DNA of 64,000 nt, from NCBI RefSeq assembly GCF_003955735.1, contig NZ_CP034464.1, positions 3,844,001 to 3,908,000 on the forward strand, in the 5' to 3' direction. The notes under the pieces are model-generated. The model was given only the letters and a program-made list of their open reading frames with translations, had not been told where the DNA came from and did not search any database. Positions 17,148 through 64,000 of this stretch are shown piece after piece; positions within the stretch are counted from its first letter, which is position 1, and each line of letters opens with the position of its first letter. The position numbers and the translations under genes were made by a program. This stretch comes from Undibacterium parvum (GTDB lineage: Bacteria > Pseudomonadota > Gammaproteobacteria > Burkholderiales > Burkholderiaceae_D).

Positions 17148-18869
17148 TTAACGTACGATCAACACATACAGCAAGAGTAGATTGAGCACGATGGCGCCGA
17201 CTGCGATGGCGCGCCATAGGGTGGCGGGGTCGCTGTTGACCAGCGGGGTGGCGTTGGGGGCGGGCAGTGGACGGGCGGCACCGCGTTCCAGTGCGAGTAA
17301 AAATTCTTCGGCGGTTTCGAAGCGCTCTTGCGGCTCGCGCGCAACTGCTTTGAGCAAGACGTTTTCTAGCCAGATCGGCAGATCGGGGCGGTAGCGGCTA
17401 GGCACCACAGCATCGCCAAATTTTGGTCTTTGAAACGGTTCTATCTCACCGTAAGGATAGTGCCGCGTCAGCAGGTAATACAGGGTGACGCCGGTGGCGT
17501 AGATGTCGCTCTGAGCGGTGGCCTTGGCACCCTGAAATTGTTCGGGGGCGAGAAAGGACGGGGTGCCGGCCATGTTAAAACTGGCCGATAAATTCTGGTC
17601 TTGTGCATCCAGACCAGATTGCGCAACGCCTAGATCGAGAATGCGGATCTCGCCATCTTCGCCCAGATGCACATTGTCTGGTTTAATGTCTCTATGCACA
17701 ATACTACGTCTATGCAAGGCACCGATGGCACGCACTAATTTGCTGCCGTAGGTGATGACATCGGGCACGGTAAAATGCTGGCCTGCGAGCAGCCGGTTCT
17801 GCAGCGAATCACCGGCATGCCAGGTCGACAGGTAGTACAGAAAATTTCTTTGTTCAGGCGTGATCACTTGCGGGAAGAAGCGTGCCACTACCCGCTTGGC
17901 AAGCCAGGCTTCATGCGCAAAAGCAGAGCGCTCATGGGCGTCGTTGGCACGATCAGGATGCAGGGTTTTTAACACCAGCTTGCGGTGCTGCACGCTGTCG
18001 TTGACCAGGTAGAGCAGGGTGGTCATCGAGGTGTGCAAAATTTCTTCGACCAGGTAGCCGTCTATCATCTGCCCGGGTTTCAGCTTGGGTGGCGCTGGCA
18101 GGCTGCGTAGTTCGGATAAGGCATCGCGCAAATCGCCTTCGGGCAGGCTCGTCACTTGCAGCACGATGGCACTGCAATTGTCTTGCGAGCCCGCCGCTAA
18201 CGCTGCCTGGCACAGAGTTTGACTGGCTAGTTCGGGTGTTAGGCTGTGCTGACTGACTTGTTTTAAGGTATCGCAAATATCGTATTCGCTGAGGGCCGCC
18301 CAGACCCCATCGCTGGCGAGTAAAAACACATCGTTCTGACGTACTTCACCCATGCCATGATCGACCGCCAGACGGGTGTCCATGCCGATTGCGCGGGTCA
18401 GTACGTGCTGCATTTCCGGTCTATCCCAGACATGGTCTTGCGTCAGTTTTTGTAGCTTGCCAAAGCCATCATCGCGTAGCAAATAGCAGCGGGTATCGCC
18501 CACATGCGCGGTGTAATACATACGACCGCGCAGCACCAGTGCCGTCAGGGTACTGGCCATGCCAGCCAATTCGCGCCTTACCGTGCCTTGCTGCTGCACC
18601 CAGCTATTGATGGCGACCAGCACTTTCTCTAGTGAGGTGGTGATTTCCCAGGTGTCGGGAGTGGCGTAATAATCGGTCAGCAAACCACGCACCGCATATT
18701 CAGAAGCCTCGCGCCCACCCTCGTTACCTGAGACGCCATCGGCAATTGCGGCGATCAAGCCCTTACTAGAAAGCTCGGGCTCGTTCGGCGTGACCATGCC
18801 GACGAAGTCTTCATTGCGTGGACGAACTCCCGCCAGCGAGTGGTGGCCAGTGCTAACGATCAGGGGCAT
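17148..18869 (-). CDS. Bifunctional PP2C phosphatase / Ser-Thr protein kinase with C-terminal membrane anchor
   Basis: A 573-residue fusion. Residues 1-240 are a PP2C-type phosphatase: RNED (18-21), ADGVSG with D44, SDGVW with D187 and QDNCS with D230 supply metal ligands. Residues about 270-535 are a Hanks-type kinase: K301 in LVLKTLHP, HRDIKPDN with D394, and DLG (D412) instead of DFG; the glycine-rich loop is poorly conserved (GYLVEEILHTSMTTLL). A single membrane helix ends the protein (about 551-573). It lies 61 bases after the NarK-type transporter gene on the same strand; this pairing is common in nitrate assimilation loci, so a role in controlling nitrate uptake or reduction is plausible but unproven. 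Confidence 0.9.
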   Translation of the reverse strand: MPLIVSTGHHSLAGVRPRNEDFVGMVTPNEPELSSKGLIAAIADGVSGNEGGREASEYAVRGLLTDYYATPDTWEITTSLEKVLVAINSWVQQQGTVRRELAGMASTLTALVLRGRMYYTAHVGDTRCYLLRDDGFGKLQKLTQDHVWDRPEMQHVLTRAIGMDTRLAVDHGMGEVRQNDVFLLASDGVWAALSEYDICDTLKQVSQHSLTPELASQTLCQAALAAGSQDNCSAIVLQVTSLPEGDLRDALSELRSLPAPPKLKPGQMIDGYLVEEILHTSMTTLLYLVNDSVQHRKLVLKTLHPDRANDAHERSAFAHEAWLAKRVVARFFPQVITPEQRNFLYYLSTWHAGDSLQNRLLAGQHFTVPDVITYGSKLVRAIGALHRRSIVHRDIKPDNVHLGEDGEIRILDLGVAQSGLDAQDQNLSASFNMAGTPSFLAPEQFQGAKATAQSDIYATGVTLYYLLTRHYPYGEIEPFQRPKFGDAVVPSRYRPDLPIWLENVLLKAVAREPQERFETAEEFLLALERGAARPLPAPNATPLVNSDPATLWRAIAVGAIVLNLLLLYVLIVR

Positions 18870-18930
18870 AGGTGGATCATCTCATTCGGTGAAAACGTTT
18901 TTCCGTCCAGGCGATGGTTTGGTTTTAGAT

Positions 18931-20145
18931 TTAAATCTTAGCAGTGGTCATGGCAGCCGAGCCCCAGGTAGTGCGCCAGCGTTTTTTGACCAATGATAAA
19001 CCCAATAAGGCGATCACAGCCAGACTGGCGAAGATGGTCAGACCGATCTGGTAGCTGCCGGTGAGCTGGCGTGAATAACCGAGGCTGGAAGCTAAATAGA
19101 ATCCACCGATACCGCCCGCCATACCCACTAATCCTGTCATCACGCCCATCTCTTTGCGGAAACGTTGCGGCACCAATTGAAACACTGCACCGTTGCCGGT
19201 ACCCAGTGCCAGCATCGCACCGACAAACACAATCACCGCGCCTATCGCTGATTGTAAGCCGGTAGAAGCGACGAACAAGAAGGCCGCCGCAATCACATAC
19301 ATGATAGAAAGCGTTTTGATGCCACCGATGCGGTCGGCGATACGCCCGCCCATAGGTCTGACCATAGAGCCGGCGAACACGCAGGCGGCGGTGAAGTAAC
19401 CAGCAGTGATAGGCGATAATCCATATTGAGTATTGAAATAAATCGTCAGGGATGACGCCAATCCCGAGAAGCCACCAAAGGTCACGCTGTAAAAGAACAT
19501 AAACCACCAGGCGTCCTTGTCTTTTAATACCGCCAGATATTCACCCAATGATTTGCTCGGTACTTCGCCCGGCGCATCCTTGGCAAACACCATGTACACC
19601 GCCAGAGCGACCAGCAAGGGGATGATGGCCAGGCCAAATACGTTCTGCCAGCCGAACATAATTGCTAAAGTAGGCGCAAACAGGGCCGCGAAGGCAGTAC
19701 CAGAATTACCGGCACCGGCGATACCCAGGGCGGTGCCCTGGTGCTCAGGCGGATACCAGCGTGAGGCTAGTGGCAATGCCACTGCAAAAGCAGCACCAGC
19801 CACGCCCAAGATGATGCCCAGAAACAGCAATTGCTCATAGCTGTGCAAATTACCCAACCAGGCCCAGCTCAGACCCGCGATCACCACCACCTGGCCGATT
19901 AAGCCGGCTTTTTTTGGTTTTAAGTGATCCACCAGCATACCCATCACGATGCGCAGCAAGGCTCCGGCCAGCAAGGGCGTGGCCACCATCAAGCCTTTTT
20001 GCGCCGCGCTTAAACCAAGGTCTTTCGCGATCTGTATACCTAGGGGGCCGAGTAAGACCCAGACCATAAAGCTGAGGTCAAAGTAAAAGAAGGAGGCGAG
20101 TAAAGTCGGGGTGTGCCCGGCTTTCCAGAATGAGGTTTTTTGCAT
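18931..20145 (-). CDS. Nitrate/nitrite transporter, NarK/NasA family MFS
   Basis: A 404-residue major facilitator protein with about 12 hydrophobic segments. The nitrate-porter signature is visible in GIAGAGNSGTAFAALFAPTLA-like form (GNSG motif near residues 147-150) and again in the second half (GLVGMAGGIGGF). LSFMVWVLLGPLG near the N-terminus is typical of NarK-type proteins. It is divergent from nirB and shares the sigma-54/NtrC-type control region, indicating import of nitrate for assimilation. Confidence 0.92.
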   Translation of the reverse strand: MQKTSFWKAGHTPTLLASFFYFDLSFMVWVLLGPLGIQIAKDLGLSAAQKGLMVATPLLAGALLRIVMGMLVDHLKPKKAGLIGQVVVIAGLSWAWLGNLHSYEQLLFLGIILGVAGAAFAVALPLASRWYPPEHQGTALGIAGAGNSGTAFAALFAPTLAIMFGWQNVFGLAIIPLLVALAVYMVFAKDAPGEVPSKSLGEYLAVLKDKDAWWFMFFYSVTFGGFSGLASSLTIYFNTQYGLSPITAGYFTAACVFAGSMVRPMGGRIADRIGGIKTLSIMYVIAAAFLFVASTGLQSAIGAVIVFVGAMLALGTGNGAVFQLVPQRFRKEMGVMTGLVGMAGGIGGFYLASSLGYSRQLTGSYQIGLTIFASLAVIALLGLSLVKKRWRTTWGSAAMTTAKI

Positions 20146-59010: not shown

Positions 59011-59100
59011 GGAGAGGTGGCAGAGTGGTCGAATGTACCTGACTCGAAATCAGGCGTGCGTGCGAACGTACCGAGGGTTCGAATCCCTCTCTCTCCTCCA
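59011..59100 (+). tRNA. tRNA-Ser (anticodon CGA)
   Basis: A class II tRNA with a long variable arm. The acceptor GGAGAGG pairs with TCTCTCC (one G-T), anticodon stem CCTGA/TCAGG around CTCGAAA (anticodon CGA, reads UCG), variable arm GTGCGTGCGAACGTAC, T stem GAGGG/CCCTC, T loop TTCGAAT, and an encoded CCA. It is followed at once by a P4-type integrase and is the likely attachment site of the island. Confidence 0.94.
59076..59100 (+). other. Likely attB/attL core at the 3' end of tRNA-Ser
   Basis: P4-type integrases commonly insert into the 3' end of tRNA genes. The 25 bases from the T loop to CCA (TTCGAATCCCT...CTCCTCCA) are the expected core. A second copy marking the other end is not visible in this window, so the island extends past the right edge or the copy is degenerate. 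Confidence 0.5.
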
Positions 59101-59210: not shown

Positions 59211-59265
59211 TTTGCATCCATGCTTGCATCCATGGATGAACCCATCAAGAAGTCATGGATGCAAA
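59211..59265. promoter_or_regulatory. Inverted repeat at the integrase start, possible operator
   Basis: TTTGCATCCATG (59211-59222) and its perfect reverse complement CATGGATGCAAA (59254-59265), with a further CATCCATGGATG palindrome at 59227-59238. The right arm ends one base before the integrase ATG. Binding of a repressor or the integrase itself could control int expression. Confidence 0.6.
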
Positions 59266-60531
59266 ATGCCGAAACTCGCTACTCCGCTAACTGACATACA
59301 GGTCAGAAATAGCAAGCCTACCGACAAGACCAGAACCCTAGCCGATGGTAATGGCCTTTATCTGGAAATTACCAAGACCGGCAAGAAGAGCTGGCGCATG
59401 GCCTACCGCCGTCCAATTACCAAAACCAATAACCGCCTAAGCTTTGGTGATTACCCCTTGGTTAGCTTGGCTGAAGCGCGCACCAAATGCTTAGCCGCGA
59501 ATAAACTACTTCTGGACGGGATAGACCCCGCTGTCCAAAGAGAAGAAAAGAAACAGCTCGCGGCTCTGGAAGCCGCCAACACCTTTGAAAAGCTAGCGCG
59601 TCAATGGCATAACACCCTTCTCTCGAAGTGGAGCCCATCGACCGCCAAAGAGACGATCAACCGGCTAGAGAAAGATATTTTTCCTGAGATTGGTCATTTG
59701 CCGATTGCATCAATTACCAATCAACAGGTCATTGCAGCCTTACGCAAAATCGAGGAACGCGGCGCAGGTGAAGTCGCGCACCGGCTCAAGGCCACCTGTG
59801 CGCGAGTGTTTAGTTATGCTAACCAGCACGACATAGAAAATAAAAATCCCGCCGCTGATTTAAAAGATGTGCTGAAGCCCGTCAAGATCGGCCACTTTGC
59901 AGCTATTGCACCTGACGAGCTGCCCGCTTTTCTGGAGGCGATAAGGGCAAATAATGCAAGGTTATACGCCCCGACCCGCATTGCTTTACGCTTGATGCTC
60001 TTAATTTTTGTGCGTAGTAGCGAACTACGCACGACACCGTGGAGCGAAATCAACTTAGAAACAGGCGAGTGGGTAATTCCATGGCAGCGCATGAAGCGTG
60101 GCAAGCTGACCATGAACCCAGATACCACGGATCACCACGTTTGTCTGTCGCGCCAAGGGCTAGAGTTATTGCGTGAGCTGCACCAGTACACTGGCGGCAG
60201 CAAGTACCTGTTCCCGAACCAGCGCGACCATGAAAAACCTATGAGTGGCGATGCAATCCGTATGGCACTAAACCGCATGGGTTACGAAGGCAAGATGACC
60301 ACGCACGGGTTCCGAGCCTTAGCCATGACGACACTCAAAGAAAAACTAGGCTACCGGCACGAGACCGTGGACAGGCAACTTGCCCACGCCCAAAAAGATA
60401 AGATCGCCAGCGCCTACGACCGCGCCCAGTTTATCGACGAACGTAAAAAGATGATGCAGCATTGGGCAGACTACCTCGATGGAATAAAGGCTGGCGGCAA
60501 CGTCATACAAGGAGGCTTCAAACAAGCCTAA
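59266..60531 (+). CDS. P4-type tyrosine recombinase (integrase)
   Basis: A 421-residue integrase with the N-terminal DUF4102 arm-binding domain (MPKLATPLTDIQVRNSKP; LADGNGLYLEI), a SAM-like core-binding domain (about 100-200) and the catalytic domain with R255 (SSELRTTPW), H347 and R350 (THGFRALAMT), H374 (QLAHAQKD) and nucleophile Y384 (SAYDRA). All catalytic residues are present, so it may be active. The in-frame TTG at 59212 lies in a repeat and is unlikely; 59266 matches the family start. It lies next to tRNA-Ser, its target. Confidence 0.94.
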   Translation: MPKLATPLTDIQVRNSKPTDKTRTLADGNGLYLEITKTGKKSWRMAYRRPITKTNNRLSFGDYPLVSLAEARTKCLAANKLLLDGIDPAVQREEKKQLAALEAANTFEKLARQWHNTLLSKWSPSTAKETINRLEKDIFPEIGHLPIASITNQQVIAALRKIEERGAGEVAHRLKATCARVFSYANQHDIENKNPAADLKDVLKPVKIGHFAAIAPDELPAFLEAIRANNARLYAPTRIALRLMLLIFVRSSELRTTPWSEINLETGEWVIPWQRMKRGKLTMNPDTTDHHVCLSRQGLELLRELHQYTGGSKYLFPNQRDHEKPMSGDAIRMALNRMGYEGKMTTHGFRALAMTTLKEKLGYRHETVDRQLAHAQKDKIASAYDRAQFIDERKKMMQHWADYLDGIKAGGNVIQGGFKQA

Positions 60532-61083: not shown

Positions 61084-61845
61084 ATGGTGACGGACACATC
61101 TAGGACTTTAACCCTAATGGAAAAACTCGATAAGCCTCAAACGAAAGATTACGACCCTCTGGTAATGTGGGCTTGTGATCTTGAAGAGATTTTCTCCGTG
61201 CTAAATAATTGTACAAAAATAGAATTTGTTGCGGATCATGTGAAATTCGAATCTGTAGAGGAGTTCGTTAAGGCAAGTAAGGGCCGCAATCCAAAGGTAG
61301 TAAAGATAAAAACAAGCGAGCCCTATCTGACAATCGACCTATACCATCGTTGGGCTCAACTATATGTTTCATCAAGTGAGTTGTTAGCATCCGGTTTGTT
61401 CCACAAGATTGATTCCATTTTGAGTCGCTGCGAGAGAAAACCTAAATTTTTCTATCGATATGGCTGGGTATTCGGTTGCTCTTTGATTCTTCCGAATATT
61501 TTCTACTTGTCACAACTGAAATCATATCGCTACCTTTCTTACTGGAGTGGGAGCCTAATAATTTTATGGCTTTCGTACGTTGCATTCATTCAGCTTTGGC
61601 GTTTTTCAGTAATTCACCCAATGTATAGAGAAGCGAGACTTAATTTTTTTCGCAGAAACAAGGATTCTTTAGTCATTGCACTTATTTCTGCAATGGTTGG
61701 CGCCGTCGGAGGCGTTGGTGCAACAAAGATAGCTGACCGAGTTTGGCCTAGCACGAGCACGAGCACGAGCACGAGCACTAGTCCTGCTGCTGAGATGGGA
61801 GCTCCGCGAACAACAACGTCGCCTTCTCCGCGCCTCTCACCATAA
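61084..61845 (+). CDS. Membrane protein of unknown function, first gene of a three-gene island operon
   Basis: A 253-residue protein. The N-terminal about 120 residues are soluble (DLEEIFSVLNNCTKIEF; EPYLTIDLYHRWAQLYV), followed by two hydrophobic helices (about 130-150 and 155-175) and a third (about 195-215, VIALISAMVGAVGGVG), then a Ser/Thr-rich tail. A six-base repeat AGCACG (about 61750-61778) encodes an STSTST tract. No family is recognised. Lower GC than the core genes. The next gene starts five bases after its stop, so translation is likely coupled. Confidence 0.72.
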   Translation: MVTDTSRTLTLMEKLDKPQTKDYDPLVMWACDLEEIFSVLNNCTKIEFVADHVKFESVEEFVKASKGRNPKVVKIKTSEPYLTIDLYHRWAQLYVSSSELLASGLFHKIDSILSRCERKPKFFYRYGWVFGCSLILPNIFYLSQLKSYRYLSYWSGSLIILWLSYVAFIQLWRFSVIHPMYREARLNFFRRNKDSLVIALISAMVGAVGGVGATKIADRVWPSTSTSTSTSTSPAAEMGAPRTTTSPSPRLSP

Positions 61846-61850
61846 ATATT

Positions 61851-62501
61851 ATGGTGCTTCAACGCGAAAAACTTGAGCAGCCTCATACGCTTGACGAGAT
61901 GCGAAACTTGCTCGACAGATTCTCTGCTGACCACATAGCTTTTCCAGACCAACTCGTGCATCTCCGTCGCGGAGTGTTCAAGGACATCATTGAGGAGTAC
62001 GCGCCGCTGTATAGCCTAGCGAACAATCTGGAAGGTTTTATGTGGGCTAGATTGACTAAAGAATCCTTTCCTGGACCGGACGCAATCATTCAACTGAACG
62101 ATCAAAGTCAAATTGCCATCCAAATTACCACTGCCGGTGAAACCCAGAAGACAGCACTTCAGCGAGAGGTTCTCAGCCGAGGCGAGTCTATTTTCCGAAA
62201 TCAAGATGCCCTCAGAATCCTTCCTTCAAAGAAAATCTTAATGAGTGGCAGAGCTTTGACTACAAAGAAGGCGAACACGGAAGAAATGATAGAGGAGGTT
62301 AAGACTGCAATTAAAAGAAAAATCTCGGCTTACCGCAATGGAACTCAATGTCTCCTCATCCTTATTTGTCAGCAATCAATAACAATGGAATTTGACTGGA
62401 AATCTCAGCTTAGAGCTGCGCTCTTAAATATAACTTTCGCTCCATATTTAGAGGTGTACGTTACGAACACTGACACTTGTACTCGGTGCGCAGGTGTGTA
62501 A
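61851..62501 (+). CDS. Soluble protein of unknown function, second gene of the island operon
   Basis: A 216-residue protein. FPGPDAIIQLNDQSQIAIQI (about residues 73-92) resembles the PD ... (E/Q)xT-type strand pair of restriction-like nuclease folds, but the final Lys is replaced, so this is only a hint. The middle part has IIEEYAPLYSLANNLEGF and SKKILMSGRALTT. No family is recognised. It starts five bases after the first gene and its TAA overlaps the next ATG (TAATG). Confidence 0.72.
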   Translation: MVLQREKLEQPHTLDEMRNLLDRFSADHIAFPDQLVHLRRGVFKDIIEEYAPLYSLANNLEGFMWARLTKESFPGPDAIIQLNDQSQIAIQITTAGETQKTALQREVLSRGESIFRNQDALRILPSKKILMSGRALTTKKANTEEMIEEVKTAIKRKISAYRNGTQCLLILICQQSITMEFDWKSQLRAALLNITFAPYLEVYVTNTDTCTRCAGV

Positions 62502-63208
62502 TGCAGCGTAACTCAGCGGAGACAGCCCGCAGACACGAAGCAAAAATTGACTATGGCAGCCCAATTTTAAAAAATTTTCCTAAGTTCACGGCGGTGCTTC
62601 GTGAGCGTGATTTAGATATAAATAGAACATTGGCTGCCGATTTAATGAAATATGACTCCGAAGCTTCTGTGGTAACTCGTTTGAATAGAATCGTTCGTCA
62701 TGCAAAGGAGCGTTTACCGATAGATAACGGTGACCGTAAAACAAACAAACCCAGAGTTTTAAACAAGATCGAAGAACTAAACGCTAAGTTGATCGAGTGC
62801 AAACAATTAATGGAATATCTATCGCATGATGATTTGCCGACAGGTGGCGAGTTATCTAAGGCATTTGAATTAGAATTTCGTGTGGTTGTGCCCGACGTTG
62901 GTCTAAACAGTTTTGGTTTTGACGCCGCATACGAGCACCTCTGTGGCCTCGTTCGCGGTGTGCAAAATGCGCAAGAGCACATCAAAACTAACCTTCCTTT
63001 TGCATGGGAAAAAACCGCTTTGTCTGGTACCGCGTTGGAGGTTTGCACGCTACTGCTCCAGTTCGATCAAAAACCGACCGCATACCTGCAAGGTTTGGCC
63101 GTAGGCTTACTTGGCGCATGCTATGAAGCTGCCGGTGGTGCCTTAAGTGCTGCCACCTATAAAAATGCGATTCAAGAAGCCTTAACACAGTTAAAAACAA
63201 AAAAATAA
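62501..63208 (+). CDS. Soluble protein of unknown function, third gene of the island operon
   Basis: A 235-residue, mostly helical protein. TAADLMKYDSEASVVTRLNR-like (AADLMKYDSEASVVTRL) and INEL-type helices (IEELNAKLIECKQLMEYL) are visible, and a C-terminal segment YLQGLAVGLLGACYEAAGGA. No family is recognised. The ATG at 62501 overlaps the stop of the second gene, so the three genes form a translationally coupled unit. A hairpin at 63213-63233 may end the transcript. Confidence 0.7.
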   Translation: MQRNSAETARRHEAKIDYGSPILKNFPKFTAVLRERDLDINRTLAADLMKYDSEASVVTRLNRIVRHAKERLPIDNGDRKTNKPRVLNKIEELNAKLIECKQLMEYLSHDDLPTGGELSKAFELEFRVVVPDVGLNSFGFDAAYEHLCGLVRGVQNAQEHIKTNLPFAWEKTALSGTALEVCTLLLQFDQKPTAYLQGLAVGLLGACYEAAGGALSAATYKNAIQEALTQLKTKK

Positions 63209-63339: not shown

Positions 63340-64000
63340 AATCAAAAGTAAGCGTCCAACAGATCCGTCTAGCATTTATTCCTAAAGCGCATTAACAAGG
63401 CAGCGGTAGCAGTTCATCAATCCGGCTGTTTGGATGCGTCGGTAATTTTTCGAGTGTGCCTTTAAGCCATGCCAAAGGTTCTATGCCATTGGCTTTCGCG
63501 GTGGCGAGCAGGCTTTGAATGGCGGCAGCTTGTCGGCCTGCTCGTTCAGAACCGGCGAAGAGCCAGTTCTTTTTGCCAATGGCAATAGGGCGAATGGCGT
63601 TTTCAATCGGATTATTGTCGATTGGCAGATGACCGCTATTGGCGTAGCGTTCAATCGCGCTCCAGCGTTTGAGGCTGTAGTCGATGGCTTTGGCGAGACT
63701 GCTGCCATCGGCGCTCTGTTGGCGTGTGTGAATCAGCCAGGCATGCATCGCTTTGAGTTCTGGCAGCGCCTGTGTAGCACGTCGTTGTTGTCGTTGTTCG
63801 ATACTGTCGCCTTTACCCTCGGCCTCAATGTGATACAGCTTTGCAATGCGTGTAAGTGCCTCATTGGCAATCGGATGCCCATTGGCGGCGTGCAGGTCGA
63901 AGAATTTGCGACGGGCGTGCGCCAGGCAGGCCAGTTCGGTGATGCCCAGCGCGAACAGGGCTTTGTAGCCGGCATAATCATCCACCATAAGATGGCCTTG
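63340..64000. mobile_element. IS66-family insertion sequence, one end inside the window
   Basis: The element end begins GTAAGCGTCCAACAGATCC at 63348, the typical IS66-type terminal sequence. The eight bases before it, AATCAAAA (63340-63347), are the presumed target duplication, which can be checked beyond the right edge. The transposase reads leftward and its 5' part lies outside. The element is the last thing seen and may interrupt or bound the island. Confidence 0.82.
63392..64000 (-). CDS. IS66 family transposase TnpC, C-terminal part
   Basis: About 202 C-terminal residues are visible, open at the right edge. LMVDDYAGYKALFALGITEL, CLAHARRKFFDLHAANGHP, YANSGHLPIDNNPIENAIRP and GRQAAAIQSLLATAKANGIE are IS66 transposase hallmarks; the DDE residues include D in VDDYAGY and E in NNPIENAIRP. 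The C-terminus ends LPLPC 40 bases before the IR. Confidence 0.93.
   Translation of the reverse strand, partial: QGHLMVDDYAGYKALFALGITELACLAHARRKFFDLHAANGHPIANEALTRIAKLYHIEAEGKGDSIEQRQQRRATQALPELKAMHAWLIHTRQQSADGSSLAKAIDYSLKRWSAIERYANSGHLPIDNNPIENAIRPIAIGKKNWLFAGSERAGRQAAAIQSLLATAKANGIEPLAWLKGTLEKLPTHPNSRIDELLPLPC

What the first reader, a model, noticed from the sequence alone, without database searches (positions are those of the whole stretch)
61084..63208. Unrecognised three-gene coupled operon in a tRNA-Ser integrative element
Seen: three plus-strand genes with a five-base gap and a TAATG overlap, so they are translated as a unit: membrane protein (253 aa), soluble protein (216 aa), helical protein (235 aa). 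They are of lower GC than the core, sit between a P4-type integrase and an IS66 element, and none belongs to a family I can name. Known: such tRNA islands often carry defence or toxin cargo. Inference: a compact sensor-effector system, with the membrane protein as possible effector and the second protein, with its PD...QIT strand pair, as possible nuclease-like partner.
Basis: partly seen in the sequence, partly recalled or inferred. Interest (0 to 1): 0.88.

Follow-up and report, generated by a model that had tools for sequence, protein, structure and literature searches.

The report
Orphan three-gene cargo of defence island
Three tightly linked bacterial genes with no recognisable relatives ride next to the integrase of a small mobile element that also carries a known anti-phage retron, which makes them a candidate, still untested, new defence module.

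Summary
Three plus-strand genes lie at 61084-63208, with a 5-base gap and a TAATG overlap, downstream of a tyrosine integrase at tRNA-Ser and before an IS66-like insertion. P1 is a membrane protein, P2 soluble, P3 predicted helical. None has a convincing match in Pfam, PADLOC, NCBIfam, PHROGs or PDB sequences. The only other copy found is in 1 of 42 other genus genomes: 14.2 kb, operon included, is identical while flanking core DNA is about 76-86% identical.

Beyond the window the element carries a P4-type primase and the three proteins of a type IX retron. Two sister elements share integrase, alpA-like region, primase and right end but have other genes in the integrase-proximal slot. Of 15 islands fetched with related integrases, 5 carry PADLOC-recognised genes, though none of the 5 with the closest integrases. 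So the operon is exchangeable cargo.

A defence role is likely but unproven. The 'nuclease' reading of P2 is weak: spacing fits PD-(D/E)XK (D77, Q91, T93), but catalytic acid and lysine are replaced. AlphaFold models of P2 and P3 were unusable.

The parts
59011..59100 (+). tRNA-Ser (anticodon CGA), likely integration target and left end of the element
   Evidence: ARAGORN
59212..60531 (+). P4-type tyrosine integrase (439 aa from the first start; 420 aa from 59269; 'P4-type' is a recalled label)
   Evidence: Pfam Arm-DNA-bind_3 2.9e-24, Phage_int_M 6.1e-30, Phage_integrase 2.1e-15
61117..61845 (+). P1: membrane protein, probably 242 aa: N-terminal soluble part (cytoplasmic by inference), hydropathy-positive stretches at about 140-166 and 185-203, S/T/P-rich tail. 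Longer alternative start at 61084 (253 aa)
   Evidence: ORF; hydropathy; start inferred from the copy in G522; no family match
61851..62501 (+). P2: 216-aa soluble protein with D77-x13-Q91-x-T93, which has the spacing of PD-(D/E)XK but lacks its acid and lysine
   Evidence: ORF; motif positions; no family match; AlphaFold pLDDT 34
62501..63208 (+). P3: 235-aa predicted all-helical protein; start overlaps the P2 stop (TAATG)
   Evidence: ORF; rough propensities and pLDDT-43 model mostly helical; no family match
63348..64000 (-). part of an IS66-like insertion (L002:5348-7834 = window numbering 63348-65834, continues beyond the window), inserted at the 5' end of the alpA-like ORF
   Evidence: inverted ends, 8-base target duplication AATCAAAA; family label recalled

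Best explanation
P1-P2-P3 are one closely packed, probably co-translated accessory module in the integrase-proximal cargo slot of a roughly 15.6-kb P4-type integrative element (about window 59100 to 74735) that also carries a type IX retron. Shown: operon layout, element anatomy, different genes in the same slot of two sister elements, recent sharing between two genomes of the genus, no detectable relatives in the searches made. Inferred: it is an anti-phage or anti-mobile-element module that helps element and host against competing phages. Most likely way of working (inference only): the soluble pair P2/P3 senses or binds a product of infection, and P1, held in the membrane with its N-terminal domain in the cytoplasm, is the output, for example by disturbing the membrane and stopping growth. 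The confidence given is for 'defence-type cargo module'; for this division of roles it is about 0.15.
For: Close packing: gap of 5 bases, then a 1-base overlap. The same element carries HEPN_IX (5.3e-51), HTH_IX (3.4e-65) and RT_IX (5.7e-124). Sister elements in G247 and G526 share integrase (87% and 86%), alpA-like region, primase and right end but other genes in the int-alpA slot. Near 5 of 15 fetched related integrases are PADLOC-recognised genes at E <= 1e-10: CRISPR I-E, Hachiman HamB, type I RM, CBASS E1-E2 plus a cyclase, and a GajB-like helicase. 10 of the 30 island proteins scanned hit, against 1 of 10 long core ORFs of the window, that one with PD-T4-6 and other kinase-type models ('kinase-type' for PD-T4-6 is recalled). 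In E. coli P4-like satellites the locus beside int is a published hotspot of antiviral systems that also holds unannotated proteins (PMC9122126, passages). All three genes are intact and identical in G522 although its integrase is mostly gone.
Against: None of the three proteins matches a PADLOC model convincingly; the best are AbiEii 0.038 for P1 and mad3 0.026 for P2, both noise level. 10 of the 15 islands showed no hit at E <= 1e-10 among the proteins scanned. In particular the 5 islands whose integrase is at least 75% identical (L055, L056, L057, L058, L064) gave 0 hits in 12 proteins scanned; the 5 positive ones have integrases 43-71% identical, and the ends of those islands were not determined. 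With only identical copies known, selection on the proteins cannot be measured, and the three are seen together in one lineage only. P2 lacks two of three catalytic residues of the nuclease motif. No function has been tested.
Confidence: 0.45

Rival explanations
1. The operon serves the element itself (maintenance, excision control, helper-phage exploitation) and is not a defence system.
For: It sits directly downstream of the integrase, inside the element.
Against: The closest sister elements share integrase, alpA-like region and primase but have no relative of any of the three genes, so the genes are not needed for this kind of element.
Confidence: 0.2
2. A toxin-antitoxin-like or addiction module: the membrane protein is the toxin and one or both soluble partners the antidote.
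For: Small packed operon with a membrane protein on a mobile element; still present after loss of most of the integrase in G522.
Against: No match to any toxin or antitoxin family; three genes of similar size are unusual for such modules (recalled).
Confidence: 0.15
3. Orphan cargo without a selected function, kept so far because the transfer was recent.
For: No relative outside one genus member in any search made; 14.2 kb identical between the two genomes leaves little time for decay.
Against: Three long intact frames beyond chance in a packed layout.
Confidence: 0.15
4. P2 is an active PD-(D/E)XK nuclease and the module is a restriction-like system.
For: P76-D77 followed by a predicted strand pair with the right spacing; rough order of helices and strands fits.
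Against: The position of the catalytic acid is Q91 and of the lysine T93; no profile match; model confidence 34.
Confidence: 0.05

Closest known systems
Integrase-proximal antiviral hotspot of P4-like satellites (E. coli; PMC9122126, passages)
   Same: Element with P4-type integrase and primase at a tRNA, exchangeable cargo beside int, reverse-transcriptase systems and unannotated proteins among the cargo
   Different: Other bacterial group; the slot lies between int and an alpA-like gene rather than psu and int; psu and other helper-exploitation genes were not looked for; a second variable slot lies after the primase
Type IX retron (HEPN, HTH, RT; retron-Kva2, PMC13405049, abstract)
   Same: A full-length set of the three protein genes lies in the same element, about 7.4 kb downstream of P3
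   Different: Separate genes with no detected sequence relation to P1-P3; the non-coding RNA was not looked for
PD-(D/E)XK nuclease superfamily
   Same: Spacing and predicted strand pair around P76-D77 in P2
   Different: Q91 and T93 in place of acid and lysine; no profile match; fold not shown

Membership tests
P4-type integrative element | Tyrosine integrase with arm-binding domain beside a tRNA gene | tested here: met
P4-type integrative element | P4-type primase | tested here: met
   DUF927 5.2e-88, PriCT_2 5e-17, Toprim_3 2.7e-11
P4-type integrative element | Remnant of the tRNA 3' end at the far end | tested here: inconclusive
   Short imperfect remnant plus arm repeats at window numbering 74635-74804; right end and arm repeats conserved in two sister elements; empty site not shown (no right-flank match in 6 genomes)
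P4-type integrative element | Helper-phage exploitation genes (psu, sid, delta) | not tested
   no call made
Known anti-phage system (PADLOC-DB 2.0.0) | Profile match of P1, P2 or P3 | tested here: not met
   best E 0.026
Known anti-phage system | Protection against phage | not testable with these tools
   needs a bench test
PD-(D/E)XK nuclease | Catalytic D, then D/E-x-K at motif spacing | tested here: not met
   D77 present, Q91 and T93 instead
PD-(D/E)XK nuclease | Core fold | tested here: inconclusive
   AlphaFold without alignment, mean pLDDT 34
LysR-type regulator (considered for P3) | Similarity of the N-terminal part to LysR HTH proteins | tested here: not met
   one LysR-type protein (L008) aligned well, but against 29 others P3 beat all shuffles in 0 of 29 and a profile of them gave E 17; Pfam HTH_1 not hit
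Type IX retron (neighbour, not P1-P3) | HEPN, HTH and RT proteins in order | tested here: met
Type IX retron (neighbour, not P1-P3) | msr-msd non-coding RNA | not tested
   no call made

The most novel reading that the evidence does not exclude
P1-P2-P3 is a new three-gene anti-phage system made only of protein families not yet described: a membrane effector with an unknown cytoplasmic domain, a catalytically altered restriction-endonuclease-like protein used as a nucleic-acid sensor, and a helical adaptor.
Probability: 0.2. Interest if true: 0.75.

Novelty: new member of a known kind. Interest (0 to 1): 0.42.

Why it matters
Hotspots beside satellite integrases have yielded new immune systems. 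Here is a compact operon of three proteins without a match in the profile libraries searched, in an element that also holds a known retron, while other islands with related integrases carry CRISPR, Hachiman, CBASS-type and restriction genes. If it protects, it would add new effector and sensor families; the test is small (about 2.1 kb to clone).

Tried and rejected
Sequence relatives. P2: scans of genome contigs and viral contigs, plasmids and phages, 294 family, 43 genus and 299 phylum genomes. P1: genome contigs, viral, plasmids, phages, 294 family, 229 class and 225 order genomes. P3: viral, plasmids, phages, 294 family and 224 phylum genomes. Result: only P2 in G522, whose locus then showed P1 and P3 too. 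P1 and P3 themselves were not searched in the genus set. The genome sets overlap and are samples, and the contig scans need exact peptide words, so rare or distant relatives can have been missed.

Weak hits, judged chance. P3 to L008 (E 0.007 per genome, so about 2 expected in 294): the ORF is a LysR-type regulator (Pfam). The pair alone scores far above 500 shuffles (104 against a maximum of 51), which at first speaks for a relation; but L008 was picked as the best of 294 genomes, and against 29 LysR-type proteins of the own genome (30 loci fetched, frame found in 29) P3 beat all shuffles in 0 of 29, with profile E 17 against 1.8e-37 for L008. P2 to L033 and L034 (1.3e-4 and 2.3e-4 per genome in 299): the matched frame holds stops and lies opposite a 740-aa transporter-like ORF in both (label recalled). 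P1 to L097 (6.9e-4 in 225; local E 7.7e-8): the match is to a membrane-protein frame and runs through its stop. P1 to L005 and L006 (0.004 and 0.008 in 294): the S/T-rich tail. Two phage hits for P1 have E 4 and 7.

DNA motif scans of viral contigs: PD...QITTA gave 21 stretches; the peptide in the inspected frame of each did not resemble P2 (tblastn of P2 against them gave nothing); for many of them the frame that I printed did not show the motif, so that inspection is incomplete. A P1 motif gave 0. A second P2 motif gave 1, in a short protein that matches elsewhere.

Structure: two AlphaFold jobs without alignment, P2 pLDDT 34 and P3 pLDDT 43; no fold search was made because such models give meaningless matches. 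P1 was not modelled (cap reached). Promoter and terminator scans did not clearly exceed shuffles (7 against 4.9, sd 2.4; 2 against 2.7, sd 1.6). An empty site was sought and not found. A paper search around mad3 gave nothing useful.

Full report
What is there. Three plus-strand ORFs at 61084-61845, 61851-62501 and 62501-63208 follow a tyrosine integrase at tRNA-Ser(CGA). The first gap is 5 bases and the second junction is TAATG. The open frames (272, 235 and 244 codons) are longer than the longest run in each of 500 first-order Markov simulations of the region (maximum 227). P1 is basic (pI 9.4 for the 242-aa form) with hydropathy peaks at about 140-166 and 185-203 and a tail rich in S, T and P; P2 and P3 have no such peaks. 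P1 most likely begins at 61117, because a 2-base deletion in the second genome breaks the frame of the upstream start.

The element. The window is part of a 4.91-Mb single-contig genome. Reading on beyond the window (L002; L002 position plus 58000 gives window numbering), the element holds an IS66-like insertion with inverted ends and an 8-base target duplication, an alpA-like ORF at whose 5' end the insertion sits (label recalled), small ORFs, a 983-aa primase with PriCT_2, Toprim_3 and DUF927, and a type IX retron set HEPN, HTH, RT at L002 12645-15013, about 7.4 kb downstream of P3. The right end is placed at about 74721-74740: arm-type repeats like those after the tRNA and a short imperfect copy of the tRNA 3' end lie there, and a similar right-end sequence follows the primase region in two sister elements. 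The attachment core is short and imperfect and an empty site was not found, so this end is likely, not proven.

Slots. In the genus, 27 of 43 genomes, the own one included, have an integrase match at E <= 1e-30. I fetched 15 of the 48 listed matches outside the own genome, from 12 genomes; three of them are contigs of 7 kb or less. The two nearest (L055, L056; integrase 87% and 86%) share integrase, alpA-like region, primase and right end, but between int and alpA they have other genes, of which I scanned one each without a clear family, and after the primase only small ORFs instead of the retron. No ORF of 60 aa or more in the 15 loci resembles P1, P2 or P3 (phmmer --max, best E 0.46). Thus the operon is exchangeable cargo.

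Company. Near 5 of the 15 integrases are PADLOC-recognised genes at E <= 1e-10: L061 (CRISPR I-E Cas8e, Cas3e), L063 (Hachiman HamB and a restriction-type protein), L068 (type I restriction and methylase, and an LmuB/AriA-like protein), L069 (cyclase and E1-E2), L059 (GajB-like helicase). In all 30 proteins were scanned, chosen by me and mostly large, and 10 hit; as a control the 10 longest of 17 long ORFs of window 1-58000 were scanned and 1 hit, with kinase-type models. Against the reading: the 5 islands with the closest integrases (75-87%: L055, L056, L057, L058, L064) gave 0 hits in 12 proteins; the 5 positive ones have integrases 43-71% identical, and where those islands end was not determined. 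L055 also has a fimbrial usher, but beyond that element's apparent right end. In E. coli P4-like satellites the place beside int is a published hotspot of antiviral systems (PMC9122126, passages). A type IX retron has been described as an abortive-infection system with a HEPN RNase (PMC13405049, abstract).

A second copy. G522, another genome of the genus, has the operon at the same tRNA-Ser. From window 61105 to 75312 the two are identical, while the flanking blocks over 1 kb, apart from one identical block, are 76-86% identical. In G522 the integrase is lost except for its 3' part (homology starts at 60263), and between 60263 and 61104 there are ten small deletions and one substitution, none in the next 14.2 kb. 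Identity runs about 0.6 kb past the likely right end, and a separate 1,362-bp block downstream is identical too, so flanking DNA was shared along with the element, as homologous recombination would do.

No relatives. No convincing family match in Pfam, PADLOC, NCBIfam or PHROGs (and, for parts of the proteins, 133; best E 0.026), none among PDB sequences (best E 0.45), none in plasmids or phages, none in E. coli genomes at the DNA level, none in sampled genomes of family, class, order or phylum apart from hits judged chance. One of these, P3 to a LysR-type protein, looked strong on its own and was tested against 29 other LysR-type proteins, where nothing remained. The searches have limits: contig scans use exact peptide words and genome sets are samples.

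P2 as a nuclease. P76-D77, then 13 residues, then Q91-I-T93 has the spacing of PD-(D/E)XK, and a rough propensity plot gives helix, two strands, helices, strand. The acid and lysine are missing, so by the motif it fails the test; it could still have the fold and bind nucleic acid. AlphaFold on the single sequence gave pLDDT 34 for P2 and 43 for P3, too low to use.

How it may work. The best-supported statement is that this is a mobile accessory module; that it is defensive is inference from company (0.45). The split of roles, with P1 as membrane output and P2/P3 as sensing pair, is speculation (0.15). Overall the finding is a real orphan operon in a known kind of place; its novelty lies in the proteins, and its function is open.

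Noticed in passing
L002:12645-15013 (window numbering 70645-73013, beyond the window): Type IX retron protein set (HEPN, HTH, RT) in the same element, after the primase.
   Followed up: partly
L010/L011 (G522:C1:68442-83450) against window 60263-75315: 14.2 kb identical between two genomes, yet ten small deletions (1-10 bases) and one substitution crowd into the first 0.84 kb and stop just before P1. Assembly fault or a local process; unexplained.
   Followed up: partly
window numbering 74740-75312 and 76361-77722 (L002:16740-17312, 18361-19722): Identity with G522 continues past the element's likely right end and returns in a separate 1,362-bp identical block, a mosaic that suggests transfer by homologous recombination.
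   Followed up: partly
L002:5348-7834 (window numbering 63348-65834): IS66-like insertion with 8-base target duplication sits at the 5' end of the alpA-like ORF.
   Followed up: partly
L002:17092-19169: Cluster of 12-base tandem units and longer direct and inverted repeats just beyond the element's likely right end.
   Followed up: no
L061, L063, L068, L069, L059: Loci with related integrases at tRNA-Ser or tRNA-Leu carry CRISPR I-E, Hachiman, type I RM with an LmuB/AriA-like protein, CBASS-type genes and a GajB-like helicase.
   Followed up: partly
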